DNA from: Arthrobacter sp. PM3
GTDB taxonomy: Bacteria > Actinomycetota > Actinomycetes > Actinomycetales > Micrococcaceae
Direction of reading: 5' to 3'
DNA: 64,000 nucleotides
NCBI RefSeq assembly: GCF_003352915.1
Contig: NZ_CP022314.1
Span: 531,397-595,396 of the forward strand
Part shown: one piece after another, positions 39,435 through 63,891 of the stretch
How positions within the stretch are numbered: position 1 is the first letter of the stretch
Layout of the letters: every line of letters begins with the position of its first letter
Program-made: the position numbers and the translations under genes
Notes under the pieces: model-generated
Seen by the model: the letters and a program-made list of their open reading frames with translations, nothing else
What the model was told of the DNA's origin: nothing
Database searches by the model: none

Positions 39435-40136
39435 GTGTCCGGCCGCGAGCTGACCCTGCTCACCGGGGGCCGGGTGGAACTGATCGGGCTCATCCCGCGC
39501 AGCAGCAACGAGACCTTCCTGGTCCAGGTCGCCTGCGGGGACGACGCCGCGTATGCGGTCTACAAGCCGGAGGCCGGGGAGCGGCCGCTGTCCGATTTCG
39601 AGCCCGGGCTCTACAAGCGGGAGCGTGCCGCCTATCTGCTCAGCGAGTCACTGGCGTGGGGACTTGTGCCGCCGACGGTCATCCGCGATGACGCACCCTT
39701 GGGGGTCGGGTCGCTGCAGTGGTTCATCGACTGCGACTTCCAGGAGCACTACTTCACGCTGTTCGCCGACGCTCCCGAGACCCACCGCGAGCTGGCCCGG
39801 ATGGCCTTGTTCGATTACGTCGCCAACAACACCGACCGCAAGAGCGGCCACGTGCTGCGCGGCGACGACGGCCGGATCTGGGGGATCGACAACGGACTGT
39901 GCTTCTCGGCCGCCTTCAAACTGCGCACCGTGATCTGGGACTTCGCCGGCGACCCCATCCCCGATGCCCTGCTCGAGGACATCGCCCCGCTCGCCGACGC
40001 CGTACCTCCCGCGGTCGCCGAGCTCCTCGACGACGACGAAGTCACCGCCCTGCGGCGCCGCGTGCAACGTCTGCTGCAGACAGGGGTGCTGCCGGTTGAC
40101 CGCACCGGCATGCGCTACCCGTGGCCGCTCGTGTAG
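39435..40136 (+). CDS. SCO1664 family protein (PI3/4-kinase-like fold)
   Basis: 233 residues from GTG 39435. Family signs are GLIPRSSNETFLVQV, YAVYKPEAGERPLSDFEPGLYKRERAAYLLSE, the kinase-like MALFDYVANNTDRKSGHVLR (catalytic-loop type D and N) and IWGIDNGLCFSAAFKLRTVIWDF (metal-binding D). The family is a distant PI3/4-kinase relative of unknown substrate found next to MSMEG_4193-type phosphatases. Its last 22 bp overlap the GH91 gene on the other strand. The DUF3090 gene that often completes this cluster is not here. Confidence 0.83.
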   Translation: MSGRELTLLTGGRVELIGLIPRSSNETFLVQVACGDDAAYAVYKPEAGERPLSDFEPGLYKRERAAYLLSESLAWGLVPPTVIRDDAPLGVGSLQWFIDCDFQEHYFTLFADAPETHRELARMALFDYVANNTDRKSGHVLRGDDGRIWGIDNGLCFSAAFKLRTVIWDFAGDPIPDALLEDIAPLADAVPPAVAELLDDDEVTALRRRVQRLLQTGVLPVDRTGMRYPWPLV

Positions 40137-41506
40137 GTGCCGGCGTCTTCGGGTTCGCGTACCTCGGGGACACCGACCGAAGGGGTGGCCCGGAAGGCGT
40201 TGACAGCCCTGTCCGCGCTAACTTGGCCGTCACGCCCGGAATCGAGGATCGAGTTCCCTGCCGACTCCGCATCGACCATGACGGCGGTAACCGCGAGGCC
40301 GGCCGAAGCCTCGGTGGTCAGCAGGGCGTCCACCTGAGCCGAGAAGCAGGAGTCACTCGATTTGGCATGAACGTCCATTGCGACGACGTGGTTGTTGGAG
40401 ATGAAGTTGCCTGTGCCCGCGGTCAGCCGGATGATGACGGGCGCCGCACCTGGCGGCCGGATGCTCTGCGAGTCGATGACCTCGGAGAAGTGGTTGCCGA
40501 TCACGGAGTTGTTGCTGCCCTCGACGCGGAGAAGCCCGTAGAGATCGTCCAGTCCGTTATCGACTCCCAGGAAGGGCGTCCAGGGCTCGTGGTCACGCAG
40601 GAAGTGATTTGTGGCCACCAGGTTTTCCGAGCTGTCCGCGGCAAGCACCACCATCCCGGGGTAGAACGAATGCAAGCGGTTGTTGGTGACGCTTGAGCGC
40701 GTGACGCCGTTGAAATGGACGCTGCTCGCACCCCGGGGGAAGACGTTGTTCGCGGTCACCAGGAGCCCGCCGTGGTTCTCGGCGTAGATCGAGTGGCCCT
40801 TGAAGCCTGCCCCGATCAGGTTGTCGGTGATCTTTGATGCCTGTCCCCACCCGCGCAACTCAATGCAGCTCCCGCATTCAGCGACGAAGTTGTCGTGAAT
40901 GGAAAGCGCGTCGGCTTTGTAGATGGTGAGAGCGTTCTCGAGGTAGACGAACCCCATGCCGTTGATGCGAAACGAGTCATTGGCGTCTGCGACATAGATT
41001 CCGGTCTTGCCGTTAACGTAGGTGTTCTCCGGATGCATCCCCGAGCCGTCCGGGTTGAAGTGCAACCCGTCGATGCAGAAGTTGGAGAATTCGACCGAGC
41101 TGATCCGTGGGTTCCCGCTTCGCGCAACATAGAAGGCGGCTCCCTTGGCTTCCTCCCCGTCTTCGCCGCGTGGAATGTCGACCAGGATGCGGCTCCCTCC
41201 GGGCCACAGCTCATGCAGGTCGGGCCATTCGTCTTCTGGAACGTTGAACCGGATGCTCGACGACGTAAAGCCGTGTCCCGAGCCATAGATCCTGAGGAAG
41301 CTGACGTCGATCAGCACCTGCGTGCGGAGGTGGTAGTCACCCGGCGGAACATAGATCACTGCTCCAGGCTTTCCGCCGCTGTTGGCATCGGTGGCGGTCT
41401 GCCGGTCCTTGATGTCGGCGATGATGCTGTTGATGACTTCACCGACGTCCTCGAACGGGTTGCCGACAGGCCATGTGGTCACGTCGTAGTAGTTCTTGCT
41501 AGACAT
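40115..41506 (-). CDS. GH91 enzyme: difructose-anhydride hydrolase or inulin fructotransferase
   Basis: 463 residues of the GH91 right-handed beta-helix family, starting NYYDVTTWPVGNP. D205 and E216 are 11 apart in LSIHDNFVAECGSCIELRGW, the spacing of the catalytic pair recalled for Bacillus inulin fructotransferase (D233/E244) and Arthrobacter chlorophenolicus DFA-III hydrolase (D207/E218). There is no signal peptide: the enzyme domain begins at residue 5, whereas Arthrobacter inulin fructotransferases are secreted. It is last in an operon with an ABC sugar importer, GH32 and fructokinase. So I favour a cytoplasmic hydrolase opening imported difructose dianhydride to a fructose disaccharide. 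The exact linkage (DFA I or III) cannot be read from sequence. Confidence 0.85.
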   Translation of the reverse strand: MSSKNYYDVTTWPVGNPFEDVGEVINSIIADIKDRQTATDANSGGKPGAVIYVPPGDYHLRTQVLIDVSFLRIYGSGHGFTSSSIRFNVPEDEWPDLHELWPGGSRILVDIPRGEDGEEAKGAAFYVARSGNPRISSVEFSNFCIDGLHFNPDGSGMHPENTYVNGKTGIYVADANDSFRINGMGFVYLENALTIYKADALSIHDNFVAECGSCIELRGWGQASKITDNLIGAGFKGHSIYAENHGGLLVTANNVFPRGASSVHFNGVTRSSVTNNRLHSFYPGMVVLAADSSENLVATNHFLRDHEPWTPFLGVDNGLDDLYGLLRVEGSNNSVIGNHFSEVIDSQSIRPPGAAPVIIRLTAGTGNFISNNHVVAMDVHAKSSDSCFSAQVDALLTTEASAGLAVTAVMVDAESAGNSILDSGRDGQVSADRAVNAFRATPSVGVPEVREPEDAGTYTSGHG

Positions 41507-41533
41507 AGGTTCTTCCCTTTGTGTTGTGGTTTC

Positions 41534-42493
41534 TCAGGGGGATGAAAAAGCGACCGGCTGATGCTCCGGGAGTTCCGCCTGCAGTTCCTCTGACGTTGGG
41601 GGCTGGGCGCCTGCACGGCGCACCGTGATGGCCGCTGCTTTGGAGGCCATGCGGCCCAGCGACTCCAGCACCGACGGCGCCAGCCCATCCGCCCCGCGCA
41701 TGAGGAGACCGTAGATCAGGGCAGACATGTACGAGTCCCCGGCCCCAATGGTGTCGACCACGGCAGACTGGACTGAGGGAACGGCCACCCGCGTGCCTGC
41801 CGTAGTCAGCAGGGATCCCTCGGCCCCAATGGTGACGGCGACGAGTCCGGCCCCAAGGTCAAGGATCCGTTGTGAGATATCTTCCAGGGACAGCCGCGGA
41901 TAGAGCCACCGTGCGTCCTCGTCGCTGAGCTTAACGACCTCTGTGAACGGGACGAGTTCCTCGAAGAGGGTTTTTGCCTCAAACTGGCTGCCGAGCAGTG
42001 CGGGTCGGATGTTGGGGTCGTATGTGACCACGCAGCGCTCATGTGATTGCTCGAGAAGCTCTCGTACTGCCGCCGCGCCCGGCGCCAGGAAGGTAGCGAT
42101 CGACCCGGTGTGCAGCACTTTGGGAAGGGTCGCCGGGGCGATCCGCGGGAGGTCCCAGCGGATGTCGAAGTCGTACTGGGCTGAACCATCGGACGCCAGG
42201 ACAGCAGTCGCCGTAGCGGTTCGGCCACGGCCCTTGGAACCGGGCAACAGGCTAACCCCGGCGCCTCGAAGGTGCTTCTCGATGGCGGTGGCGTGGTGGT
42301 CGTCGCCGATTGAGGTCAACAATGCGGTGTCCGCACCGAGCCGCCCCAGCCCGTAGGCAACGTTGGCGGGTGAACCGCCGGGGTGCTCCACGGTGCCCCG
42401 GGGGGAGACAACGATGTCCACGAGGGCCTCACCGATCACGAGGACATCGTTGCCGGATGCGGGATCAGCGGCGGCGTGCTGGGCTGTCGGCAT
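41534..42493 (-). CDS. PfkB-family fructokinase (DFA operon copy)
   Basis: 319 residues. Signatures are VIGEALVDIV, HPGGSPANVAYGLGRLG, VTYDPNIRPALLG and the anion-hole/catalytic VVDTIGAGDSYMSALI with D253. It phosphorylates fructose released by the GH32 enzyme. AGGAAGG lies upstream of ATG 42493, which follows the GH32 stop by 11 nt. By eye about two thirds of its residues match the second copy at 58554. Confidence 0.92.
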   Translation of the reverse strand: MPTAQHAAADPASGNDVLVIGEALVDIVVSPRGTVEHPGGSPANVAYGLGRLGADTALLTSIGDDHHATAIEKHLRGAGVSLLPGSKGRGRTATATAVLASDGSAQYDFDIRWDLPRIAPATLPKVLHTGSIATFLAPGAAAVRELLEQSHERCVVTYDPNIRPALLGSQFEAKTLFEELVPFTEVVKLSDEDARWLYPRLSLEDISQRILDLGAGLVAVTIGAEGSLLTTAGTRVAVPSVQSAVVDTIGAGDSYMSALIYGLLMRGADGLAPSVLESLGRMASKAAAITVRRAGAQPPTSEELQAELPEHQPVAFSSP

Positions 42494-42504
42494 TCTGGAC
42501 CTTC

Positions 42505-44085
42505 CTAGTTAATTGTTGAGACCGTGAGGTTGTGTACTGTTGCCGAGCCTCCCGAGACCGAGAGCCAGTTCTCGCGGCTTTCAGGGCTTGGGAAGATCAG
42601 ATCGGTCAGGACCGCCTTGCCGCCTTGGGCAAACACTTCCACCGAGCAGTGATCCACCACGATGAGCAGCTTCAGCACTCCATTTTCCAGCTCAACCGGT
42701 GCGGACTCTACCGAAGCGAATTTCCCGTGGAAGCGAGTGTTTCCTGATTCGCTGCGGTCCAGGATGAGTTGGGCGGTGGCTGTGCTGTAGCCAAGAACCG
42801 TACCCTCGGCCCCGTCACTGCTTCCGAAGAGCCGGAAATCAACACGTTCAGCGGTTCCGGGCAGGATCTCCGCCTCGATGATCTGAGCGGTACCAGGTAC
42901 CCCGTCCGGCAACCGCAGAGACGAGTTTCGCAGCTCGAAGTTGCCTGCATTCATCTGGTCCGTGGCTGCAGGCAGGCCTTCTCCTGCGCCGGGATCTGCG
43001 AGGACCGGTTTCTGGATCAGACGGGCGGCGCCGTCGACTGCTGTGAGGCGCACTTCGCGGGCGAGGGTCATCGAGGACCGCCAGGGGTCGGTGGGCAGCT
43101 CGTTGGCGTAGTCCCAGTTGTTCATCCAGCCGATGATGATGCGCCGGCTATCCGGGGTGTTGCTGAAGGATACGGAGGCGTAGCAGTCGCGTCCCCAGTC
43201 CAGCCACAGGCATTGCTGCAGGGCTGCAGGGGCCGCCTCGGGGTCGAGGGAAGCCAGTCCTTCGGGCGCCGCGAGCGAGCCATCATCCGGGGTGAACCGG
43301 ACGCCGTCGAAGTTCCCCACGAAGTATTGGCCGCCGGAGCCCCCTGCCACGGCGCCTGGATTGACGTTGACGATCAGTACCCATTTGATGTTGGCCGGGT
43401 CCCCGTCCACCGCCAGGGGAAAGAGATCGGGGCATTCCCATTCGCCGGCGTCGGCATTGGCCGGGCCGAAGTCGCTCAGAAAGTCCCAGGACTTGAGGTC
43501 GTCCGAACGGTAAATGACCACCTTTTGGTGTTGGGCTTCGACGGCGACCATGACCCAGCAGGAACCGTGGTCCCCTTGATAGCGGAAGACTTTGGGATCG
43601 CGGAAGTGCGCGGAGTTCCGGGTGAGGACAGGGTTTCCCTCGTATTTTCGCCACGTCATGCCTGCGTCTGTGCTGAAGGCCAGAGACTGGGCCTGGGTGC
43701 CGCTGTGTTCGGACGCGGCTTTGTAGGCACTGGTGTAGATGGCCACCAGGGCAGGCGCCCCCGCCGTGCCGAAACCGGACGTGTTGCCGTGGTCCACCAC
43801 GACGCTCCCCGAGAAGATGTCCTCTGTCTCATCGCAGGCAATGGCAACAGGGTGTTCCGTCCAGTACAGCAAATCGGGGGAGGTGGCGTGGCCCCAGGAC
43901 ATGTTGCCCCAGACGTTGCCGTACGGGTTGTTCTGGAAAAAGAGGTGGTACAGACCGTCGTGGAAAACGAGGCCATTGGGATCGTTGAGCCAGGTATCCC
44001 TTGCCGTGAAATGGATGGCGGGCCGGAACCTGGAGGTCCCTGCCAGGGCTGTTTCCGGGCGTGCGGCATCAAGGCGACTGGACAT
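42505..44085 (-). CDS. GH32 beta-fructofuranosidase/exo-fructanase, cytoplasmic (DFA operon copy)
   Basis: 526 residues. Catalytic residues: D35 in WLNDPNG (nucleophile), D163 in FRDPKVF (transition-state stabiliser) and E217 in WECPD (acid/base). The five-blade propeller is followed by the usual beta-sandwich (VDHCSVEVFAQGGKAVLTDLIFP). No signal peptide, so it acts on imported short oligosaccharides such as inulobiose. AAAGGAA lies upstream of ATG 44085. Confidence 0.93.
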   Translation of the reverse strand: MSSRLDAARPETALAGTSRFRPAIHFTARDTWLNDPNGLVFHDGLYHLFFQNNPYGNVWGNMSWGHATSPDLLYWTEHPVAIACDETEDIFSGSVVVDHGNTSGFGTAGAPALVAIYTSAYKAASEHSGTQAQSLAFSTDAGMTWRKYEGNPVLTRNSAHFRDPKVFRYQGDHGSCWVMVAVEAQHQKVVIYRSDDLKSWDFLSDFGPANADAGEWECPDLFPLAVDGDPANIKWVLIVNVNPGAVAGGSGGQYFVGNFDGVRFTPDDGSLAAPEGLASLDPEAAPAALQQCLWLDWGRDCYASVSFSNTPDSRRIIIGWMNNWDYANELPTDPWRSSMTLAREVRLTAVDGAARLIQKPVLADPGAGEGLPAATDQMNAGNFELRNSSLRLPDGVPGTAQIIEAEILPGTAERVDFRLFGSSDGAEGTVLGYSTATAQLILDRSESGNTRFHGKFASVESAPVELENGVLKLLIVVDHCSVEVFAQGGKAVLTDLIFPSPESRENWLSVSGGSATVHNLTVSTIN

Positions 44086-44124
44086 GTCTGGCGTTCCTTT
44101 TGGGAAGTGGAAGGGGCTGGCTGC

Positions 44125-45168
44125 CTAGTGCCGGGGAGCCGTGACGGAGTCGCGGCGCACCAGGGGGCAGTTCAGAATGGTCGGGTGAATCGCCATGAGG
44201 GTAAGGTCGGTCTTCCCCTCAACGGCGTCAATCAGGTGCTCGGTGGCCCAGGCACCCATCTCGTAGTGCGGCAGGGCGACGGTGGTGAGGCCCGGGTGGA
44301 GGTTGGCGGCGATCAGTTCCTGGTCATCGAAGCCGACGACGGAAAGGTCGGCGGGGATGGCAAGTCCCAACTCCGCAGCGGCGCGGTAGGCTCCCATCGC
44401 CATGCGGTCGTTGTAGCAGAACAAACCGGTGGGCCGGTCCTCTCGTGCCAGGATCCGCCTCGCCGCTTCATAGCCGCCCTGCACCTCGGAGACGTCGGAC
44501 TCGACAGGTGCCGCGTCGCCGTCGAGCCCTGCTTCAGTCAGCGTGTCCCGGAAGGCCTGGAGCCGCTGACGCGTTGCGGGAACATCATCGGTGTTGTTGA
44601 TGAAGCCCACCCGGGTGTGGCCCGCTTCGAGGAGCGCGCCCACGGCGGCGCGCGCACCGCCTTCCTCGTCCGGGATCACGGCTGTGATGTTTCCGCCCGT
44701 GGCCACCGAGTCGACCAAAACGGAGGGCACGCTGCCGAGGTTGGCCGGCAGCTCCACGTTGCGGTGGTACATGGTGGCGTAGAGGATCCCGTCCACCCGG
44801 TGTTCCAGGAGGGCCTCCACGTCGGCTTGCCGCGATTCGAGGCTGGCCGAGCCCGGGGTGTTGATGATCATGAGGTTGTACCCTCGGGCTTTGGCGGCCT
44901 CGTCAGCGCCGAGGATGATCCGGCCGGCGTGGGGCGTGGTCGCGATGTCCTCGCTGATGAACCCGATCATGCCCGAACGTTGGGTGCGAAGGGCCTGCGC
45001 CAGCCGGTTCGGCCCGTAGCCGAGCCGCTGGGCCGCTTCCTGGACCCGTTCCCTCGTCTCTGCTCCGACCCGGGCGTAGACGACGTCATTGAGGACGTGG
45101 GAGACCGTCGTCACAGAGACGCCGGCCGCGGCGGCCACGTCCTTGATACCGATGTTCTTGTTGCTCAT
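44125..45168 (-). CDS. LacI-family repressor of the DFA/fructan operon
   Basis: 347 residues from ATG 45168; a GTG three codons earlier is in frame but lacks spacing to its AAGGA. HTH and hinge: IGIKDVAAAAGVSVTTVSHVLNDVVYARVGAETRERVQEAAQRLGYGPNRLAQALRT. Periplasmic-binding-type effector domain follows (GLFCYNDRMAMGAYRAAAELGLAIPADLSVVGFDDQEL). It lies inside the operon it presumably controls, through the palindromes at 48584-48601 and 48622-48631. The effector is likely the imported saccharide or a breakdown product. Confidence 0.9.
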   Translation of the reverse strand: MSNKNIGIKDVAAAAGVSVTTVSHVLNDVVYARVGAETRERVQEAAQRLGYGPNRLAQALRTQRSGMIGFISEDIATTPHAGRIILGADEAAKARGYNLMIINTPGSASLESRQADVEALLEHRVDGILYATMYHRNVELPANLGSVPSVLVDSVATGGNITAVIPDEEGGARAAVGALLEAGHTRVGFINNTDDVPATRQRLQAFRDTLTEAGLDGDAAPVESDVSEVQGGYEAARRILAREDRPTGLFCYNDRMAMGAYRAAAELGLAIPADLSVVGFDDQELIAANLHPGLTTVALPHYEMGAWATEHLIDAVEGKTDLTLMAIHPTILNCPLVRRDSVTAPRH

Positions 45169-45295
45169 CTCTCCCACGTCCTTATGGTTGGTGATGCTCT
45201 TGAGGGTCCGCGTCTACTCGTAGGCTACCGAGGAATCGTCCACTCCCCTGTGCCACGCCGTGAGGCGGGCCGTTTGGCTGCCGGAATTCCATGTT

Positions 45296-46249
45296 CTACC
45301 CCTTGACGGCGCCGAGTGTCATGCCTGCGACGATCTTGCGCTGCAAGATCAGCGTGAGGAGGATGACCGGGATCGAGTACACGGCCGCGAGCGCCGTCAT
45401 GGATCCCCAGTCCAGCCCGAACTGGGTCTGGAAGTTCGCAATCACCACGGGTGTGGTCTGCGAGCGGATGGCCGTCATGAGGAGGGCGAAAAGGAACTCG
45501 TTCCAGGAGGCCAGGAAGGCGAAGATCGCGGTGACTGCGATGCCGCCGGACACCACCGGGATCACCACCCGCCACAGGGCGCCGAGCCGGCTGCATCCGT
45601 CCACCGTGGCTGCCTCTTCCAGGTCGTTGGGAACGGCCTCGAAGAAGCTGGACATCAGCCAGATCGAGAGCGGCAACGAAATCGTGGTGTGGGCGATGGA
45701 CAGGGCGATGGGCGTGTCAGCGAGTCCCGCCGTCGCCATCATGGAGGCGAGGGGGATGCCGATGGCGACCGGCGGCACCATCCGGGTCACAAGAGCCGCC
45801 ATAATGAACACCCGGCCGCTTGGCGTTTTGTAACGGGTGATGCCGTAAGCGGCCGGCACGGCCAGTCCGAGAGACAGGATCGTGCTGATGACCGCCGTCT
45901 GGACGCTGTTGATGAAGGAGGCCAGAACTCCGTTGCGGCCCAGGGCGTTGGTGTAGTTCTCCAGCGTCCATTCCTTGGGAAGGATCGTGGGCGGCACGGC
46001 GATGGTGTCGATCGGCGTCTTGAAGGAGGTGAACAGCAGGTACAGGAACGGAAAACCGTAGAGGACCATGGCGGCTGCAAGAAGGATCCACAGCAACGCG
46101 CGGGTGCTGCGTTTGCCCGCTTCCAGGCCTTCGCGGTTCACACCCCGGCGCTTGCGGGCGCCGGCAGGCGTGGTGGTCGGCACAGAGCTAACGGCAGGCA
46201 CTGCAGGTGCCTTCCCGCCGTCGGCCCTGGTTTGTTCGGCGACGCGCAT
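45296..46249 (-). CDS. ABC sugar permease, MalG type (CUT1)
   Basis: 317 residues from ATG 46249, overlapping the previous stop (TGATG). A ~55-residue cytoplasmic Ala/Pro/Arg-rich extension precedes six helices. The EAA loop for ATPase contact is DLEEAATVDGCSRLGALWRVVIPVV. It is the second membrane subunit of the operon's importer. No ATPase gene is present, as usual for actinobacterial CUT1 systems that share one MsiK-type ATPase. A 127-bp gap before lacI shows nothing notable. Confidence 0.9.
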   Translation of the reverse strand: MRVAEQTRADGGKAPAVPAVSSVPTTTPAGARKRRGVNREGLEAGKRSTRALLWILLAAAMVLYGFPFLYLLFTSFKTPIDTIAVPPTILPKEWTLENYTNALGRNGVLASFINSVQTAVISTILSLGLAVPAAYGITRYKTPSGRVFIMAALVTRMVPPVAIGIPLASMMATAGLADTPIALSIAHTTISLPLSIWLMSSFFEAVPNDLEEAATVDGCSRLGALWRVVIPVVSGGIAVTAIFAFLASWNEFLFALLMTAIRSQTTPVVIANFQTQFGLDWGSMTALAAVYSIPVILLTLILQRKIVAGMTLGAVKG

Positions 46250-47136
46250 CAGTTGTCCTTTCCTGGCCGCCAAATGGTGGCCACCGCGAAGAACGCGACA
46301 GCGAGCATCGCGACAAGGTAGATGGTGCCCATGGCGCTGGCCAGTCCAGGATCGCCGAAGCGGATCATGGTCCGGTAGATCAGCAGGCTCATGGTTTCGG
46401 AAGCCGACTGGGGGCCGCCGTTGGTCTGGATCAGGATGGTGTCGAAGGCGCGGGCTGCGTCGATGCCGCGCACCACCAATGCCACGGCGATAACGGGGCG
46501 CAGGAGCGGCAGGATGATGCTGAAGAGCAGCGTCGGGGCCTTGGCGCCGTCGAGCCGGGCCGCCTCGATGAGGTCACCGGGAATGTTCTGGAGTCCGGCA
46601 AACAGCACCAGGCACATGAAGGAAGTGGTGAGCCAGATGTCCGGGACGGCCACGGAGAAGAGGACGATGCCCGGGTCGGACAGCCAGCCGATCTGGTTGG
46701 GGTTTTGCAGGATGCCGGCCTGGTGCAGGAGGGTGCCGATGAGGCCGAAGTTGTCGATCATGAGGAACTTCCACAGCAGGCCCGCGACGATGGGCGCGAT
46801 CATCAGCGGGTACAGGAACACTGTCCGCCAGATCTCGGACTTGCGCCCCAGGGTGGTGAATAGCAAGGCCATGCCCAGGCCCAGGGCAAACTCGAGCGTA
46901 ACCACCACCAAGGTGTAGGCGAGAGTGCGCCAGCCCGCACCTATGAAAGCCTCCGAGGTGAAGGCCCGAACGTAATTATCCAGGCCCACGAAGGCGCGGG
47001 GACCGCCGGCGATCGGCGAGATCTTGAAGAAGCTGTCTGCCACGAGGCGGAACAGCGGGTAGGCCACGAATACTGCCAGGAACAAGGCCGCCGGGGCCAT
47101 GAGGTACAGGGCGAAGCGGCGATCGGAGATACGCAC
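46249..47136 (-). CDS. ABC sugar permease, MalF type (CUT1)
   Basis: 295 residues starting at GTG 47136, six helices, with the EAA loop DLIEAARLDGAKAPTLLFSIILPLLRPV. The periplasmic segment between helices 1 and 2 (FFKISPIAGGPRAFVGLDNYVRAF) is typical. It pairs with the MalG-type subunit downstream. Confidence 0.9.
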   Translation of the reverse strand: MRISDRRFALYLMAPAALFLAVFVAYPLFRLVADSFFKISPIAGGPRAFVGLDNYVRAFTSEAFIGAGWRTLAYTLVVVTLEFALGLGMALLFTTLGRKSEIWRTVFLYPLMIAPIVAGLLWKFLMIDNFGLIGTLLHQAGILQNPNQIGWLSDPGIVLFSVAVPDIWLTTSFMCLVLFAGLQNIPGDLIEAARLDGAKAPTLLFSIILPLLRPVIAVALVVRGIDAARAFDTILIQTNGGPQSASETMSLLIYRTMIRFGDPGLASAMGTIYLVAMLAVAFFAVATIWRPGKDN

Positions 47137-47160
47137 GGTTTTCTCTTCCGCTGGTTGGGG

Positions 47161-47216
47161 CCGCGGCCGGCACCGCCGTTGCTGACGGTGCCGCGCTGGC
47201 AGGGTGCCGGCCGCGG
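47161..47216. terminator. Long hairpin between binding-protein and permease genes
   Basis: Perfect 14-bp arms, CCGCGGCCGGCACC (47161-47174) and GGTGCCGGCCGCGG (47203-47216), enclose 28 nt that hold a smaller CCGT/ACGG pairing. It starts 5 nt after the binding-protein stop. Such hairpins reduce read-through and protect the 3' end, so the binding protein is made in excess of the permeases. Confidence 0.65.
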
Positions 47217-47221
47217 AGTCT

Positions 47222-48502
47222 TTACTTGAGGAGGTCCTGGATCTGCTTCTTCGCGTCGGCCAGGAGAGCGGTGGAGTCGCCGCCCGCTACGGCCTTTTGC
47301 AGCAGGGGAACCAGGACGGTGTCCACGATCTGCTGCCATTTGGCAGTGGCAGGCCGCGTGGCGGTTGCCTGGCCCTTGAGGGTTTCGATGAGCGGCTTGA
47401 AGCTCTCGTAGCCCGGCTTGTCCTGGTACTTCTCGAAGGCCGAGATGCGGGCGGCCAGGCCTAGGCTGGATTCGATGCCGAGGTCATTGTGGTCATAGGC
47501 GCACTTGACGAACTTCTTGGCAGCATCGCTGTTCTTGGTTGCCTTGGGCACGGAGAGGTACCAGGGGCCGGGAACACCGGCCACCCCGGCAGTGCCGCCG
47601 ATCATCGGAGCGGCGCCGACCTTGCCGGCAACCGGGGAATCTTTGGGGATCTGCCGGTAGGCGTGGGCCCAGAACCGGGTCATCGCAGTCTTGCCCTGGT
47701 TGAACAGGTTCTGCGCTGCTGCCCAGTCCACCTGAGCGGCGCCGGGAGGGGCCGACTTGGCCAGGCTGGTGTAGAAGTCGAGGGCTTCCTTGTGCGCGGC
47801 GTTGTCAATCACGACGTTGTTGTTCGCATCGAGGACCATCGGGGAACCGGCCTGGAGGACATGGGCCAGCCATTCGGTTTCGACGCCACCCTTCACGTCA
47901 GTGCCGTACATGCCGTCCTTCGTGAAGAACTCGGAGATGTCCTGGTATTGCTTCCAGGTGGTCGGCGCGGCGAGGTCGTAACCGTACTTGGTCTTGAAGT
48001 CGGCCTTGTTCTTGGCGTCCTCGAACAGGTCCTTGCGGTACAGGATGATTTCGGAGTTGGTCCAGGCCGGCATGCCGATGAAGTGCCCGTCCACGTTCGC
48101 TTCCTTCACGAGCGCGGGGAAGATGTCCTTCTTCGCGTCGTCGGTGAAGAGTTCGTCAATGGGCTGGACCGCGTCCTTGAAGCTGGGAAGCCAGACGGAG
48201 TCCAGCGCGGCGACGTCGAAGGAAACGTTGCCGGAGGAGAACTCGCTGGAGAGCCTGTTGAACATGCCGTCGTAGGGCAGTTCGACGAAGTTGACGTCAA
48301 CGCCCGTGTCCTTCTTGCACTGTTCGGCAATGCCTGTCAGTTCGGCATGGCCACCCGCCTCGACGAGGACGTTGACGGTGCTCGCGGCGCTACCCGGCGT
48401 TGCAGCCGGGCCCCCCGCGCCGCAGGCGGTTGCTGCCAGAAGCACCGCGGTGGACAGCCCGCCGAGGGCGGCGATCCGGGAAATCGTGGTTCGAGAAGAC
48501 AT
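47222..48502 (-). CDS. Extracellular sugar-binding lipoprotein (DFA/fructan importer)
   Basis: 426 residues. Lipoprotein signal with lipobox LAATAC, modified Cys at 27. The mature part is a family 1 binding protein (ELTGIAEQCKKDTGVDVNFVELPYDGMFNRLSSEF, GNVSFDVAALDSVWLPSF, MPAWTNSEIILYRKDLF, VGAAPMIGG). It captures the substrate outside the membrane for the MalFG-type permeases. AAGGGAG lies before ATG 48502. First gene of the seven-gene operon. Confidence 0.92.
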   Translation of the reverse strand: MSSRTTISRIAALGGLSTAVLLAATACGAGGPAATPGSAASTVNVLVEAGGHAELTGIAEQCKKDTGVDVNFVELPYDGMFNRLSSEFSSGNVSFDVAALDSVWLPSFKDAVQPIDELFTDDAKKDIFPALVKEANVDGHFIGMPAWTNSEIILYRKDLFEDAKNKADFKTKYGYDLAAPTTWKQYQDISEFFTKDGMYGTDVKGGVETEWLAHVLQAGSPMVLDANNNVVIDNAAHKEALDFYTSLAKSAPPGAAQVDWAAAQNLFNQGKTAMTRFWAHAYRQIPKDSPVAGKVGAAPMIGGTAGVAGVPGPWYLSVPKATKNSDAAKKFVKCAYDHNDLGIESSLGLAARISAFEKYQDKPGYESFKPLIETLKGQATATRPATAKWQQIVDTVLVPLLQKAVAGGDSTALLADAKKQIQDLLK

Positions 48503-48603: not shown

Positions 48604-48633
48604 ACAGTAGAGCCGCCGTCGGACACGTGTCAA
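48604..48633 (-). promoter_or_regulatory. Promoter of the DFA operon with a second palindrome over the -35
   Basis: On the minus strand, TTGACA (48633-48628) and TACTGT (48609-48604) are separated by 18 nt. The perfect 10-bp palindrome GACACGTGTC (48622-48631) overlaps the -35 and looks like a second CG-centred LacI half-match. The rest of the 352-bp gap (48503-48854) holds the AAGGGAG leader on this side and the PadR promoter on the other. Confidence 0.55.
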
Positions 48634-58553: not shown

Positions 58554-59489
58554 CTAAGGCGCAGGCTGCAGTTGGGTTTGGAGTTCTTCCAGCGTCGGAG
58601 GGTTTGCGCCCGGGCGCCGCACGGTGATGGCGGCGGCCATGGAGGCTGTGCGGCCCAGCTGTTCCAGGACGGCCGGCGCGAAGCCGTCGGTCCCGCGGGT
58701 CAGGAGGCCCAGGATCAGGGCTGCCATGTACGAGTCTCCGGCGCCTATCGTGTCAGCGACCCTGGATTTCACGGACGGAACGTTCAGCTGTGCCGCATGT
58801 GTGGCGAGCAGTGAACCCTGGGCGCCTTGGGTGATGACGGCCAGCCCGGCACCCAGCCCCAGCAGGTGCGCCGCGGTGTCCTCCAGATCCTTCCGGGGGT
58901 AGAGCCAGTGCGCGTCCTCGTCGCTGAGCTTGACGACGTCCGTCAGCTGAACGAGGTCTTCGAAGATGGCCGCTGCCTCGGCGTGGCTGCCGAGCAGGGC
59001 GGGCCTGATGTTGGGGTCATAGGTGATCGTGCATTCGTGGCGGCACTGCTGCAGGAATGATTTGACCGCGCCTGCCCCCGGTGCGAGAAAGGTGGCGATC
59101 GACCCGGTGTGCAGGACCTTCGGGCTGCAGGCGGGAGCGACCGGCTCCAGTGCCCAGGATATGTCGAAGTCGTAGGCGGCGGATCCGTCCGGGGCAAGCG
59201 TTGCTGTCGCCGACGCGGTTCTGCCCAGGGAATAGGAGCCGGGCAGGAGGGTGACGCCGGCACTGTGCAGGTGCTTTTCGATGGCGGCGCCGTGTGCGTC
59301 GTCGCCAATGGCGGTCAGCAGCCCGGTAGCGACGCCGAGCCGGCCAAGCCCGTAGGCGACGTTGGCGGGTGAGCCGCCAGGGTATTCGATCGTCCCCTCG
59401 GGCGAGGTGACGACGTCGATGAGCGCTTCTCCGACGACCACGACGTCCAGAAACGGCCGGGCTGGCCCGGGGGCCTCTAAATCGTGCAT
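58554..59489 (-). CDS. PfkB-family fructokinase (second fructan module)
   Basis: 311 residues. VVVVGEALIDVV, YPGGSPANVAYGLGRLG, ITYDPNIRPALLG and VADTIGAGDSYMAALI show a ribokinase-fold fructokinase with catalytic Asp near 252. It is a close paralogue of the copy at 41534. It is the last gene of the second fructan operon, 123 bp after GH32. Confidence 0.92.
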   Translation of the reverse strand: MHDLEAPGPARPFLDVVVVGEALIDVVTSPEGTIEYPGGSPANVAYGLGRLGVATGLLTAIGDDAHGAAIEKHLHSAGVTLLPGSYSLGRTASATATLAPDGSAAYDFDISWALEPVAPACSPKVLHTGSIATFLAPGAGAVKSFLQQCRHECTITYDPNIRPALLGSHAEAAAIFEDLVQLTDVVKLSDEDAHWLYPRKDLEDTAAHLLGLGAGLAVITQGAQGSLLATHAAQLNVPSVKSRVADTIGAGDSYMAALILGLLTRGTDGFAPAVLEQLGRTASMAAAITVRRPGANPPTLEELQTQLQPAP

Positions 59490-59567
59490 GTCATGTCTCT
59501 CTTCAGGTGGGGTTCCGGGCCCGGGGTCGTGAACGCGAGCCCACGCCGGCGGGTGTGCTCGCGCCGT

Positions 59568-59590
59568 GGGGTCGGCGGGACCCCGACCCC
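59568..59590. terminator. Intergenic hairpin between GH32 and fructokinase
   Basis: GGGGTCGG (59568-59575) and CCGACCCC (59583-59590) form an 8-bp stem with a 7-nt loop; a second, imperfect GCGAGC/GCTCGC stem lies next to it at 59535-59562. They may act as processing or partial termination sites within the operon. Confidence 0.5.
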
Positions 59591-59612
59591 TGGACCGGCA
59601 ATCCCTGGACTG

Positions 59613-61121
59613 TTATGCGTATTGAGTAACACTTAGGCTGTCGATGGTTGCCGTGCCCCCGGTGGCGTAGAGCGAGACCTCGGTGCTGGTGGCGGCCGGG
59701 AAGATCAATTCGGTCAGGGTCACCTGGCCTTCCTGGGCGAACACCTCCACGGAGCAGCGGTCCACATAGACGGTGATCTCGTAGGATCCGTCCGTCGTCC
59801 GGATCGGGGCGGTGTCGATCGACGCGAAGGATCCGTGGAAGTCGGTTTGCCCGGATTCCCTTCGGTCGACGACGATACGGCCTTCCGTGGGCCGGAGGCC
59901 GATGCGGGTTCCCTCCGCTTCCCCGCCGCGGACAATCAGGCCGCATTCCTCGGCTGTTCCCGGCGTGACGGTGAGCTCAATACGTTGGACACTGCCTGCT
60001 GCACCGTCCAGGACGTGCCGGCCGTCAGATAATTCGATCGCCGCGAGGCTGAATGACGGGGTCTGCACAGCGTGGGGGGCCCGCTCCCCTGCGGCCTGCT
60101 GCACCAGCCGCCAACTCCCATCCACGCTCTTCAGGGACACTTCACGGACCAGTGACATGGGACTGCGCCACGGCGAGGTGGGGATCTCGTTGGCGTATTC
60201 CCAGTTGTTCATCCACGCGATCATGAGGCGTCGGTCATCTGGAACGTCGCTGAACGAGACGGCCGCGTAGTAGTCCCGGCCCCAGTCGAGCCACTGGTAC
60301 TCGCCCAGCCTGTCGGGGTCTTGCGGGCCGTCGGTGACCGTGGTGGCTGAGGTGAACGTGGTTCCGTCGAAGTCTCCGACGAAATACTGCCCGGCCGAAC
60401 CGCCGTTGGGGCCGCCGGGGTTGAGGTTAACGGTCAGGACCCACTTAAGGTTTTCCGGGTCGCCGTCGACAGGCAGCGGGAAGAGGTCCGGGCATTCCCA
60501 GACGCCGCCGGTCGCATTCGCCGGACCGAAAGTGCTCAATAGCTCCCAGTCCTTGAGGTCGAGGGATTTGTAGAGGACGACTTCGAAGTCTTTGGCTTCG
60601 ACGGCCACCATGACCCAGTAGCTGCCGGCGTCGCCGTCGTAGCGGAAGACCTTGGGGTCGCGGAACTCGGCGGATTCCCGGTTCAACACCGGGTTTCCGG
60701 TGTATTTGGTCCAGGTGTGGCCGCCGTCGAGGCTGAAGGCCAGGGACTGGGCCTGGATGCCGTGGTGTGCGGAGGCAGTCTTGTAGGCGCTGGTATAGAC
60801 GGCCACCAGCGGCGCGGCTGCTCCGGTGCCGAATCCGCTGGTGTTCTCGCGGTCGTAGACGATGCTGCCGGAGAAGATGTCTTCAAATTCGTTACAGGCG
60901 ATGGCGACGGGGTGCTCGGTCCAGGTCAGCAGGTCTGTGGAGGTGGCGTGGCCCCACGACATGTTTCCCCAGACGTTGTCCAGCGGGTTGTTCTGGTAGT
61001 AGAGGTGGTAGACGCCGTCGTGAAAAATCAGGCCGTTGGGGTCATTCAGCCAGGTGTTGCGGGCTGCGTAGTGCAGGGCCGGTCGGAAGGTCTCGGCTGT
61101 CGTGGCGGTCGCGGCAGTCAT
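59613..61121 (-). CDS. GH32 beta-fructofuranosidase/exo-fructanase, cytoplasmic (second module)
   Basis: 502 residues. Catalytic D27 (WLNDPNG), D155 (FRDPKVF) and E209 (WECPD) are intact, and the beta-sandwich includes VDRCSVEVFAQEGQVTLTELIFP. No signal peptide. It is clearly homologous along its whole length to the copy at 42505 but not identical, so the two arose by older duplication or separate acquisition. It works on oligosaccharides delivered by the LplBC-type transporter upstream. Confidence 0.93.
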   Translation of the reverse strand: MTAATATTAETFRPALHYAARNTWLNDPNGLIFHDGVYHLYYQNNPLDNVWGNMSWGHATSTDLLTWTEHPVAIACNEFEDIFSGSIVYDRENTSGFGTGAAAPLVAVYTSAYKTASAHHGIQAQSLAFSLDGGHTWTKYTGNPVLNRESAEFRDPKVFRYDGDAGSYWVMVAVEAKDFEVVLYKSLDLKDWELLSTFGPANATGGVWECPDLFPLPVDGDPENLKWVLTVNLNPGGPNGGSAGQYFVGDFDGTTFTSATTVTDGPQDPDRLGEYQWLDWGRDYYAAVSFSDVPDDRRLMIAWMNNWEYANEIPTSPWRSPMSLVREVSLKSVDGSWRLVQQAAGERAPHAVQTPSFSLAAIELSDGRHVLDGAAGSVQRIELTVTPGTAEECGLIVRGGEAEGTRIGLRPTEGRIVVDRRESGQTDFHGSFASIDTAPIRTTDGSYEITVYVDRCSVEVFAQEGQVTLTELIFPAATSTEVSLYATGGTATIDSLSVTQYA

Positions 61122-61203
61122 GAAGGTGACGTCTCATTTCGTGGCAGGTCGGGTCCATGCAGGTCCTTGTGAGGATGCCGCAGGGGGATGAATGGGGCGG
61201 GCA

Positions 61204-61228
61204 GGGCCGGCTCGGATGGCGCCGGCCC
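61204..61228. terminator. Hairpin after the binding-protein gene (second module)
   Basis: GGGCCGGC (61204-61211) and GCCGGCCC (61221-61228) with a 9-nt loop, 17 nt past the binding-protein stop. Its position parallels the hairpin at 47161-47216 in the first operon. Confidence 0.55.
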
Positions 61229-61245
61229 CCACCCGTTCCCGGTAG

Positions 61246-62853
61246 TTAGGAGTTCTTCTTGTAGCGGTCGTAGGCCTGCTGGTAGACCTCGATCATTTTC
61301 TCGACGCCGATGTTCTTGAGCTGGGTGACGTAGCCGTCCCATTCCTGCTCAATTCCTCCGGAGACGATCCACTTGGCGACGTTCTGCTTGACCAGCGAGG
61401 CGCTGTCGGTCTCGATACTGCTGATCTGCTGGAGTTCGTCGGCGGACAGTGCCACCGCGGGGTAGCCGTCGTTGCCCGCGAAGGGCTTGTAGTTCTCGTT
61501 GACGGTCTTCTGTCGCTCGGCCGCGCGCGGTTCGGGAGCGACGACGGTCTTGAAGTTCTCCGCGGTGTTGGCCTTCGGGCCGCCCGGGGCAACCTTCTGG
61601 CGGCGTTCGCCTTCGCTGGTTCCGGCGGGGGCCGGGATCTGGATCAGCAGCCCGTTGGCGTCCTTCTTCAAAGTCTCACCGATCGGTCCCCAGTTGGCCT
61701 GGGCGGACTGGATGGGATCGTAGAGATTGTCGGCCCAGCGCATGGTCGCGGCGGGGTATTTGTCGGCCCGGGTGATGGCGAAGGCGCCGCGGGCGATTTC
61801 CTGGTTGTTGGACTGGCTCGCGATACGCTTGCCGTCCACGCCCTGGAGCACGGGGACAAGGGCGTAGTCCTTGGCGCGCTCTGCACCGACCATCTCGGGG
61901 ATTTCCCACCAGGCGAACGCGCCGAGATTTTCCGTGGCCGCTTTGCCCTTGGCGAGGTAGGCCTTGTCGTCCTGGGAGAAGGATTCCGGGTCGATCAGGC
62001 CTTCCTGGTACCACTGGTGCAGGGTCTGGATGGCTTTTTTGTAGCCGTCCTGGGTGGGGGTGAAGATGACTTTGTTGTCCTGGACGATGCGGTGGTCCAT
62101 GTTGTCAGGTACCCCGCCGAGGGCCGCGATCAGGTCAACGATGTCTCCGCACCAGGAGCCGGGCATGAAGCTCAGCGGGATGGTTTTGCCTGTCCCGGAC
62201 GCGTCCCGGGTCTTGAACACGAGCAGGGCGTCGTGGAATTCAGCGATGGTCTTGGGCATGGGGATGTTGAGCTTTTGCAGCCATGTGGTGTTGATGGCGA
62301 TTTCGTTGGGGAACTGGACCAGGCCGAGTTCTTCCACGGACGGGAGGGAGTAGATGTGTCCGTCGGAGGAAGTGATCGCCGCCTTGATATCGGGCCGTGC
62401 CGCGAGCAGCTTGGAGAGGTTGGGCGCGTTCTTTTCAATGAGGTTCTCCAGCGGGATCAGCGTGCCGCTGGCGGAGTACGTTGCGATTTCGGCATCCGTC
62501 AGGCCGCTGTTGAAGAACGCGTCGGGAAGGTCCCCGCTGGCCAGGATGAGGTTCTTCTTTTCCTGGAAGACCGTCTCGGGCAGGTTCTGCCAGTCGATGT
62601 GGATGTTGGTGTCCTTTTCCCAGTTCTTCACCACGGTCATGGTGTTGTAGTCCGGTGCCAGGGCCGTTTTCGTCCCCGAGAACTTCAGGGTCAGCTGCTT
62701 GCTGACGATCGGGAAGCCGGTCGCCTGGTACCCGTAGTCAGCGGAGGCGTCTGCGGCCTCCGGGGAGCCGGAATTGCCGCCGGAGCAGGCGGTGAACGCC
62801 AGTGTTCCGGTCAGGAGGGCGCCAAGGACGGCGTATTTGCGGCTGATTGCCAT
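61246..62853 (-). CDS. Large sugar-binding lipoprotein (LplA/LipO type, second fructan module)
   Basis: 535 residues from ATG 62853, which has AGGA at proper spacing; an ATG two codons earlier is also in frame. Lipobox LAFTAC places the modified Cys at 23. The mature protein is a large family 1 binding protein (NTMTVVKNWEKDTNIHIDWQNLP, LASGDLPDAFFNSGLTDAEIATY, GHIYSLPSVEELG), over 100 residues longer than the one at 47222 and of a different subgroup. Such proteins usually bind longer oligosaccharides. Confidence 0.92.
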   Translation of the reverse strand: MAISRKYAVLGALLTGTLAFTACSGGNSGSPEAADASADYGYQATGFPIVSKQLTLKFSGTKTALAPDYNTMTVVKNWEKDTNIHIDWQNLPETVFQEKKNLILASGDLPDAFFNSGLTDAEIATYSASGTLIPLENLIEKNAPNLSKLLAARPDIKAAITSSDGHIYSLPSVEELGLVQFPNEIAINTTWLQKLNIPMPKTIAEFHDALLVFKTRDASGTGKTIPLSFMPGSWCGDIVDLIAALGGVPDNMDHRIVQDNKVIFTPTQDGYKKAIQTLHQWYQEGLIDPESFSQDDKAYLAKGKAATENLGAFAWWEIPEMVGAERAKDYALVPVLQGVDGKRIASQSNNQEIARGAFAITRADKYPAATMRWADNLYDPIQSAQANWGPIGETLKKDANGLLIQIPAPAGTSEGERRQKVAPGGPKANTAENFKTVVAPEPRAAERQKTVNENYKPFAGNDGYPAVALSADELQQISSIETDSASLVKQNVAKWIVSGGIEQEWDGYVTQLKNIGVEKMIEVYQQAYDRYKKNS

Positions 62854-62931
62854 GGTCATTCCTATTCTGAGCTGTGGTTTTCCGGCTCTGGCGGCTGCCG
62901 CCGGGGCCGGGTGATGCGAGGGGAGTTGTTG

Positions 62932-63891
62932 CTATTTCACGGCGCCGATCATGGCGCCCTTGGTGAAGTGCTTCTGCATGAATGGCAGGGCAATCATCAG
63001 CGGCAGGCTCGAGACGACGATCATGGCGTACTTGGTGAGCTCTGCGATCCTTTGCGCTGCGGCGTAGGACTGGATGTCTCCTCCGGTGGTTCCGGTGGAT
63101 GAAACATCGGATTGGATGAGGATGTTGCGCAGCACGAGCTGCAGCGGGTACTTGGTGTCATCGTTCAGGAAGATCAGTGCGTCGAAGAACGAGTTCCACT
63201 GCGCCACGACGTGGATCATGATCATGAGCATGATCAGGGGTTTGGACAGCGGCAGGACCATCTTGAAGAAGAACTTGAAGTCGGTCGCCCCGTCCATCTG
63301 GGCAGCTTCACGCAGCTCATTCGGGATGGTGTGTTCGAAGAAGGAACGGGCGATGATCAGGTTCCAGACTCCGACGGCGCCGGGAAGCACGACGGCCCAG
63401 ATGGTGTTGAGCATGCCCAGGTCGCGGACAACCAGGTACTTGGTGATGAGGCCGCCGTCGAAGAACATGGTGATCACAAACAGGAGCATCAGAAATTTCC
63501 GGCCCGGCATGTCCTTGCGGGACAGTGCGTAGGCACCGCAGAGGATCGTGCTGACACTGATGGCGGTCCCCAGGACGGTGTAGATCAGCGTGTTGCCCAG
63601 GCCGTTCCAGATCCGGCTGTCCGCGAAAATCCGCTGGTAACCCTCCAGGGTCACCCCGGAAGGGAACAGCCAGACCTTGCCCTCATAGATCGCGTTTGGA
63701 TCGCTGACGGACGCGATCACGATGAAGTAGAGAGGGTAGACGACAGCGAGGATGGACAAAAGCAGGATGGCGGTGGCGGTGACGTTGAAGACCCGGTCGC
63801 CGTACCTGTCTCTCAGCGTTTGCCTGGGGCGGACCTGATTGAGGGTCTGCTTCGGAGCGTCGGTAGTGCGGTGGTTGGTAATCAAAGACAT
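62932..63891 (-). CDS. ABC sugar permease, LplC/YtcP type
   Basis: 319 residues with six helices and the EAA loop ELREAAQMDGATDFKFFFKMVLPLSKP. IASVSDPNAIYEGKVWLFPSGVTLEGYQRIF is typical of the LplC group. It lies 7 nt after the preceding permease gene and 78 nt before the binding-protein gene. Confidence 0.92.
   Translation of the reverse strand: MSLITNHRTTDAPKQTLNQVRPRQTLRDRYGDRVFNVTATAILLLSILAVVYPLYFIVIASVSDPNAIYEGKVWLFPSGVTLEGYQRIFADSRIWNGLGNTLIYTVLGTAISVSTILCGAYALSRKDMPGRKFLMLLFVITMFFDGGLITKYLVVRDLGMLNTIWAVVLPGAVGVWNLIIARSFFEHTIPNELREAAQMDGATDFKFFFKMVLPLSKPLIMLMIMIHVVAQWNSFFDALIFLNDDTKYPLQLVLRNILIQSDVSSTGTTGGDIQSYAAAQRIAELTKYAMIVVSSLPLMIALPFMQKHFTKGAMIGAVK

What the first reader, a model, noticed from the sequence alone, without database searches (positions are those of the whole stretch)
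40115..48502. A complete operon for cytoplasmic use of a difructose dianhydride
Seven co-oriented genes encode a binding protein, two permeases, LacI, GH32, fructokinase and a GH91 enzyme that lacks a signal peptide. Known Arthrobacter inulin fructotransferases are secreted and make difructose anhydride outside the cell. The present arrangement instead fits uptake of the dianhydride, cleavage by GH91 (D205/E216), hydrolysis by GH32 and phosphorylation of fructose. The substrate assignment is inference; the gene order and missing signal are seen directly.
Basis: partly seen in the sequence, partly recalled or inferred. Interest (0 to 1): 0.75.

Follow-up and report, generated by a model that had tools for sequence, protein, structure and literature searches.

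The report
Soil bacterium's difructose-anhydride eating operon
A set of seven genes lets this soil bacterium import a ring-shaped fructose disaccharide (difructose anhydride III) and cut it to fructose inside the cell; the pathway is already known, but this strain appears unable to make the sugar itself and so probably lives on what others make.

Summary
The operon is real, at the stated coordinates. Its GH91 enzyme is a DFA-III hydrolase (DFA-IIIase), not a secreted inulin fructotransferase (IFT): 822 bits to crystallised A. chlorophenolicus DFA-IIIase versus 357-369 for DFA-III-forming IFTs and 280 for a DFA-I-forming enzyme; DFA-IIIase lid present, no room for a signal peptide; groups with 80 DFA-IIIases. 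Corrections: the catalytic pair is D199/E210, not D205/E216; the operon lacks a transporter ATPase. Cytoplasmic DFA-IIIase feeding a fructosidase is published for Arthrobacter, a like gene cluster for Blautia (PMC4640833, PMC8605356, PMC11538131): a new member of a known kind. Added here: the binding-protein gene is in 48 of 48 family genomes with DFA-IIIase and 1 of 347 without; a double LacI-type operator behind a TTGACA element is conserved in 51 of 51 close upstream regions, window included; this genome has no second GH91 match. Only 10 of the 48 genomes carry an IFT with a signal-like N-terminus, so most carriers, this one included, look like consumers of DFA III they cannot make outside the cell. 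No assay was run.

The parts
47222..48502 (-). ABC transporter substrate-binding lipoprotein (SBP_bac_1), predicted DFA III receptor
   Evidence: orthologue in 48 of 48 family genomes with DFA-IIIase, 1 of 347 without
46249..47136 (-). ABC permease 1 (BPD_transp_1)
   Evidence: homologue within 9 kb in 65 of 65 full-flank loci
45296..46249 (-). ABC permease 2 (BPD_transp_1); ATG start at 46249 preferred, TGATG overlap with permease 1
44125..45177 (-). LacI-family regulator, predicted to control the operon
   Evidence: homologue within 9 kb in 65 of 65 full-flank loci
42505..44085 (-). GH32 beta-fructosidase, no signal peptide visible; nearest solved structure exo-inulinase 8i12 (574 bits)
   Evidence: signal judged by eye
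41534..42493 (-). PfkB-family sugar kinase, predicted fructokinase
   Evidence: best NCBIfam model fructokinase, 108.8 bits, below its 450-bit cut-off
40115..41506 (-). GH91 DFA-III hydrolase; D199/E210 catalytic pair, lid about residues 377-407, C387
48571..48601 (-). double overlapping LacI-type operator TGCCAAGTCGATTTGGCAAAACGGTTTTTCA
   Evidence: at most 5 mismatches to the consensus in 51 of 51 close upstream regions (window included), 0 in resampled sequence; the 18-bp right half is unique in the genome at up to 1 mismatch
48604..48633 (-). promoter: TTGACA (48633-48628), 18 nt, TACTGT (48609-48604), running into the operator
   Evidence: exact TTGACA within 50 nt upstream of the operator in 51 of 51 close upstream regions, resampled expectation 0.75; the generic sigma-70 scan reported no promoter here

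Best explanation
This is a LacI-controlled DFA III utilisation operon. The binding protein and two permeases, powered by an ATPase encoded elsewhere, import DFA III. Cytoplasmic GH91 DFA-IIIase opens it reversibly to inulobiose; the cytoplasmic GH32 splits inulobiose into two fructoses, pulling the unfavourable equilibrium; the PfkB kinase phosphorylates fructose. LacI sits on a double operator next to the promoter and is presumably released by DFA III or a breakdown product. Shown here by sequence: gene content, family, lid, catalytic residues, absence of signal on the GH91, co-occurrence, operator conservation. Inferred: substrate of the transporter, which ATPase serves it, inducer, flux. 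Because the genome has no other GH91 match, the strain probably consumes DFA III made by other organisms.
For: PDB comparison 822 bits to DFA-IIIase versus 357-369 for DFA-III-forming and 280 for DFA-I-forming enzymes (type of 8hsn/8hui from its title). Lid stretch of 37 residues in window and 80 of 80 DFA-IIIases; 11 residues in 34 of 37 other GH91, the other three (3, 10 and 11 residues) being truncated, divergent or out of frame there. DFA-IIIases including window and P. aurescens TC1 fall on one side of one branch, SH-aLRT 100; the TC1 gene is presumably AAur_0696, whose 95.57%-identical homologue in SK8.001 was assayed (PMC4640833). AF2 model matches 5zla_B and 5zku_F with TM 0.91/0.95. 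Open frame leaves no room for a signal. SBP orthologue in 48 of 48 genomes with DFA-IIIase, 1 of 347 without. GH32 nearest to exo-inulinase. One UgpC/MsiK-type ATPase over the family cut-off (478 against 432 bits) lies elsewhere in the genome; a full-length close relative of it (76% identity) lies beside the operon in 1 of 80 named loci. Published enzyme chemistry: PMC11538131 and PMC4640833 (sections read), PMC8605356 (passages).
Against: No biochemical or expression data for this strain. The lid is low-confidence in the model (pLDDT 53-55 at residues 381-400), so closure over the active site is not confirmed. Blautia DFA-IIIase also acts on nystose, GF4 and inulin (PMC11538131), so the imported cargo could include inulo-oligosaccharides. 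G225 carries the transporter with a lidless GH91 and no DFA-IIIase. A GH32 was not detected with the window's in 10 of 65 loci (a shorter GH32-like enzyme stands there in 5 of 6 inspected) and no PfkB in 32 of 65. Kinase and GH32 score below NCBIfam cut-offs.
Confidence: 0.88

Rival explanations
1. The operon is mainly for inulobiose and short inulo-oligosaccharides; the transporter imports these and the GH91 only deals with them or with DFA III formed inside.
For: The Blautia DFA-IIIase also acts on GF3, GF4 and inulin, said to be like the A. chlorophenolicus enzyme, and its kcat/Km is higher on inulobiose than on DFA III (PMC11538131). The GH32 is of exo-inulinase type.
Against: For such cargo GH32 alone would do, yet the binding protein is found only with a GH91: 49 orthologues in 395 genomes, 48 with DFA-IIIase and 1 with a lidless GH91.
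Confidence: 0.12
2. The GH91 is an inulin fructotransferase that makes DFA III outside the cell.
For: Same family; the lid-deleted A. chlorophenolicus enzyme is reported to behave as an IFT (PMC11538131).
Against: Lid present, no signal, in the DFA-IIIase group, less than half the bit score to IFTs.
Confidence: 0.02
3. The substrate is another dianhydride such as DFA I.
For: The DFA I cluster of Bifidobacterium dentium has a similar layout (LacI, GH32, ABC transporter; PMC8605356, passages).
Against: That cluster uses a DUF2961 enzyme, not a GH91; Blautia DFA-IIIase did not hydrolyse DFA I (PMC11538131, data not shown there). DUF2961 gave no match in this genome, but its control rang nowhere, so that absence is not shown.
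Confidence: 0.04

Closest known systems
DFA-IIIase of Arthrobacter chlorophenolicus A6 (PDB 5zks, 5zku, 5zla)
   Same: About 82% identity over about 440 structural alignment columns, same lid and C387, same fold
   Different: Window enzyme has an 18-residue C-terminal tail (446-463); activity not assayed
DFA III degradation clusters of Blautia species (PMC11538131, sections read)
   Same: GH91 DFA-IIIase, GH32, ABC transporter genes, in two strains a sugar kinase; proposed uptake then cytoplasmic degradation
   Different: Blautia is a gut Lachnospiraceae genus; no regulator or operator is described in the sections I read; the window cluster has a LacI gene and no ATPase
Inulin-via-DFA III pathway of Arthrobacter sp. 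H65-7, A. ureafaciens and P. aurescens SK8.001 (PMC4640833 sections, PMC8605356 passages)
   Same: Intracellular DFA-IIIase, then beta-fructofuranosidase
   Different: Those strains also have an extracellular IFT; the window genome has no second GH91 match
DFA I cluster of Bifidobacterium dentium (DUF2961 enzyme, PMC8605356 passages)
   Same: LacI, GH32, ABC transporter, enzymes without secretion signal; no GH91 IFT in that genome either
   Different: Unrelated anhydride-opening enzyme family and a different isomer

Membership tests
GH91 DFA-III hydrolase (DFA-IIIase) | Sequence in the DFA-IIIase group rather than with IFTs | tested here: met
   the tree is a quick IQ-TREE run, unrooted, and groups were first labelled by identity over 70% to the window
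GH91 DFA-III hydrolase (DFA-IIIase) | Extra lid region near the C-terminus | tested here: met
   window and 80 of 80 DFA-IIIases have it; lid-deleted 5zky aligns with 377-407 missing
GH91 DFA-III hydrolase (DFA-IIIase) | Catalytic Asp and Glu (D207/E218 in A. aurescens) | tested here: met
   D199/E210, invariant in 117 of 117 other GH91 rows; exact match to published numbering not confirmed
GH91 DFA-III hydrolase (DFA-IIIase) | No signal peptide | tested here: met
   open frame 472 codons for 463 residues
GH91 DFA-III hydrolase (DFA-IIIase) | Hydrolyses DFA III to inulobiose | not testable with these tools
   needs an enzyme assay
Inulin fructotransferase (DFA-III-forming) | Secreted and lidless, as in L064 (844 bits to 9j4i, twin-arginine-like N-terminus) | tested here: not met
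Carbohydrate ABC importer (CUT1 layout) | Binding protein, two permeases, own or shared ATPase | tested here: inconclusive
   SBP and two permeases met; no ATPase in the operon, one candidate elsewhere in the genome, its use unproven

The most novel reading that the evidence does not exclude
The operon marks a consumer guild: most carriers, this strain among them, are dedicated scavengers of DFA III that other bacteria make from inulin. Dependence is one-way: in 395 family genomes, 38 of 48 DFA-IIIase carriers lack an IFT with a signal-like N-terminus and 21 of 48 have no other GH91 match at all, while all 10 genomes found with such an IFT also have the DFA-IIIase, and a full-length lidless GH91 without DFA-IIIase was found in 1 genome (the search query was the DFA-IIIase). 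Cyclising inulin would then not keep the sugar private, and a transporter plus DFA-IIIase cassette that may move between genomes (lower GC, different neighbours) is the cheater's tool.
Probability: 0.45. Interest if true: 0.5.

Novelty: new member of a known kind. Interest (0 to 1): 0.32.

Why it matters
It names the likely DFA III transporter, a candidate inulobiose-splitting GH32 and a concrete operator for the LacI regulator in Arthrobacter-type bacteria; PMC4640833 (2015) says the inulobiose-splitting enzyme was not yet identified there. It makes a simple ecological test possible: whether strains without inulin fructotransferase live on the DFA III of strains with it. DFA III is made on an industrial scale (PMC11538131, introduction), so its consumers may matter for process losses.

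Tried and rejected
One search covered a wrongly guessed Pfam family (DUF3737) and a family (BNR_2) that proved irrelevant. One search (DUF2961) found nothing but its control rang nowhere, so I draw no absence from it. The generic promoter scan reported no promoter; the promoter claim rests on conservation. My first, strict operator pattern matched 47 of 78 upstream regions; the composite consensus, written from those same sequences, fits 51 of 51 close regions (window included) within 5 mismatches and 22 of 27 distant ones within 9; the control was first-order resampling, 20 per region, 0 matches. The 18-bp operator pattern with 1 mismatch allowed also matched once in its reversed control, so one weak match in a genome is expected by chance; the site here has 0 mismatches. 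I looked for a remnant of a divergent GH91 or secreted GH32 beside the operon and found none. I looked for an empty insertion site in 12 relatives chosen from the 61 genomes: 12 of 12 keep the left neighbours (AAA, HisPhos, SCO1664) and lack the operon there, but they do not show the window's right neighbours apart from one weak 28% ABC match in L167, so no exact empty site is shown. Horizontal arrival is therefore only suggested: operon GC is 63.8% against 68.2% in the rest of the window, but the window's right end is equally low (63.5%). The AF2 model does not test lid closure.

Limits of counts: the 395 genomes are an even draw from a larger family, at most 4 candidates were scored per genome, and the same handles recur. 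The named-locus scan kept the best 80 of 105. Of the 48 DFA-IIIases, 30 were checked for premature stops (the window and the 29) and all 30 are open to at least residue 444; the other 18 were not checked. Of 51 genomes with a GH91 match, 3 were not counted as DFA-IIIase carriers: G225 (lidless only), G327 (fragment), G171 (weak short matches). Neighbour counts take any homologue over 60 bits within 9 kb, not only genes in the same operon. Signal peptides were judged by eye and by a twin-arginine pattern, not by a predictor. The tree is unrooted, SH-aLRT only, and its program flagged long branches.
Full report
What is there. Seven minus-strand genes at 40115-48502 encode, in order of transcription, a binding lipoprotein, two permeases, a LacI regulator, a GH32 enzyme, a PfkB kinase and a GH91 enzyme. 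The window lies in a single-contig genome of 4.35 Mb, at C1:531397-595396. The genes are closely spaced, the last two gaps being 11 and 27 nt.

The GH91 enzyme is a DFA-IIIase. Its best PDB match is A. chlorophenolicus DFA-IIIase (822 bits, residues 1-445), then the C387A mutant and the lid-deleted form; DFA-III-forming IFTs score 357-369 bits and 8hsn 280; one search gives the title of 8hsn/8hui as DFA I-forming inulin lyase. In an alignment with 80 DFA-IIIases and 37 other GH91 proteins from the named loci, the lid stretch is 37 residues in the window and in all 80. It is 11 residues in 34 of 37 others; the remaining three (3, 10 and 11 residues) are a truncated protein, a divergent one and one that leaves the family's frame. 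The tree (quick method, unrooted) puts the 81 DFA-IIIases on one side of one branch with SH-aLRT 100. It includes P. aurescens TC1, whose gene (presumably AAur_0696; I did not see a locus tag) is 95.57% identical in DNA to that of strain SK8.001, an assayed DFA-IIIase without signal peptide (PMC4640833; abstract, sections 3, 17, part of 19 and passages). The open frame allows at most 9 more N-terminal residues. The AlphaFold2 model (mean pLDDT 85.3, 35 sequences) matches 5zla_B and 5zku_F with TM-scores 0.91/0.95; the lid itself is low-confidence.

The rest of the operon. The GH32 shows no signal and is nearest to an exo-inulinase, suitable for the beta-2,1 bond of inulobiose. The kinase's best NCBIfam model is fructokinase, far below its cut-off. 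No ATPase is encoded; the genome has one UgpC/MsiK-type ATPase over the family cut-off, far from the operon, and a close relative of it (76% identity) lies beside the operon in 1 of 80 named loci (65 of these have 9 kb on both sides). That it serves this transporter is inference from the known sharing of such ATPases in actinobacteria (recalled).

Association. In 65 named loci with at least 9 kb on both sides, homologues of SBP, both permeases and LacI are present within 9 kb in 65, a GH32 detectable with the window's in 55, a PfkB in 33. In 395 genomes of the family, 48 have a full-length DFA-IIIase (71-100% identity). Orthologues of the binding protein (56-100% identity, at least 507 bits) occur in 49 genomes, with a gap down to 100 bits for the next match: all 48 carriers plus G225. 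G225 has the ABC genes, LacI, a large GH32 and a lidless GH91 instead. This strict pairing argues that the transporter's cargo needs a GH91, hence DFA III rather than plain inulo-oligosaccharides.

Regulation. The region upstream of the SBP gene carries TGCCAAGTCGATTTGGCAAAACGGTTTTTCA at 48601-48571: two overlapping LacI-type palindromes. Within 5 mismatches of the consensus it is present in 51 of 51 upstream regions with SBP identity of at least 75%, window included, and within 9 mismatches in 22 of 27 others; resampled upstream regions gave 0. An exact TTGACA lies within 50 nt upstream in 51 of 51 (32-33 nt in the five printed), with TACTGT 18 nt after it in the window. The operator thus starts 2 nt after the -10 element and would block transcription start. 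In the whole genome the 18-bp right half occurs once at up to 1 mismatch, here with none (the reversed control also gave one match), so the regulator seems dedicated to this operon.

Producer or consumer. The genome has no other GH91 match. Of the 48 carriers (on regions fetched): 10 have an IFT-like GH91 with a twin-arginine-like N-terminus; 10 have a signal-less lidless GH91 of about 401 residues; 3 have other signal-less lidless forms; 1 a truncated one; 3 only remnants; 21, the window's included, no other match. The nearest relative by SBP (G393, 96%) keeps only a 53-residue remnant of the lidless gene at the divergent position. The simplest reading is that this strain uses DFA III made by others, or formed abiotically. 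Other GH32 enzymes in the genome (6 in all; one with a hydrophobic N-terminus, nearest to an endolevanase) may give access to other fructans.

Origin. The operon's GC is 63.8% against 68.2% in the rest of the window, and homologues of its neighbours (HisPhos, SCO1664, PadR) were found beside the operon in none of the 80 named loci. In 12 of 12 chosen relatives AAA-HisPhos-SCO1664 are present without the operon. This fits horizontal arrival, but the window's right end is equally low in GC and no exact empty site was found.

What is known. The two-step intracellular pathway in Arthrobacter (DFA-IIIase, then beta-fructofuranosidase) and the three-stage scheme of extracellular synthesis, uptake and intracellular degradation are stated in PMC4640833 and PMC11538131 (sections read) and PMC8605356 (passages). 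PMC11538131 describes the same kind of gene content in Blautia, with growth tests and enzyme assays. I searched the library five times. The three papers I opened describe no Arthrobacter operon with this transporter and operator in the parts I read; that is a statement about those searches and parts only, and most subscription papers are not held. The finding is therefore a well-supported new member of a known kind, with useful added detail on transporter, operator and distribution.

Noticed in passing
window 58554-63891 (-): A second fructan-type operon: PfkB kinase (69% identical to the first), GH32 (59% identical), a 537-aa binding lipoprotein without Pfam match and a permease; it reaches the end of the window, and a LacI gene lies beyond (L155:2267-3316)..
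   Followed up: partly
L037:2756-3961 (-), L015:4903-6108 (-), also L007, L019, L027, L035, L042, L050, L053, L056, L077: A class of lidless GH91 proteins of about 401 aa with an in-frame stop 4 codons upstream, hence no signal peptide, divergent from the DFA-IIIase operon; in L015, L019, L027, L035, L037, L042, L050, L056 and L077 the next gene is a GH32 with a signal-like N-terminus. The L037 protein is about equally far from IFT and lid-deleted DFA-IIIase structures (468 and 438 bits); some relatives are labelled DFA-I-forming IFT by sources. What a cytoplasmic lidless GH91 does is unclear.
   Followed up: partly
L039:8101-9081, L062:11421-12389, L074:8932-9951: In loci where the usual GH32 was not detected the operon holds a 320-340 aa enzyme with a weak GH32 N-terminal match (65-82 bits) and no C-terminal domain; a candidate different inulobiose hydrolase. 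Seen in 5 of 6 such loci inspected, three run against Pfam..
   Followed up: partly
G225, L157:8900-18625: The only family genome of 395 with the transporter's binding protein but no DFA-IIIase; it has the lidless GH91 instead..
   Followed up: partly
window 40115-40170 (-): GH91 has an 18-residue tail beyond the conserved end; its last 22 bp overlap the 3' end of the convergent SCO1664-family gene (39435-40136), perhaps a junction effect.
   Followed up: no
L154:1265-1684, L152:1718-2014, L153:1204-1524: Remnants of the lidless GH91 gene in genomes with a full-length DFA-IIIase, suggesting repeated loss..
   Followed up: partly
G000:C1:2310732-2311658 (L123:985-2955): GH32 with an N-terminal hydrophobic stretch, nearest to endolevanase LevB1 and levan fructotransferase..
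   Followed up: partly
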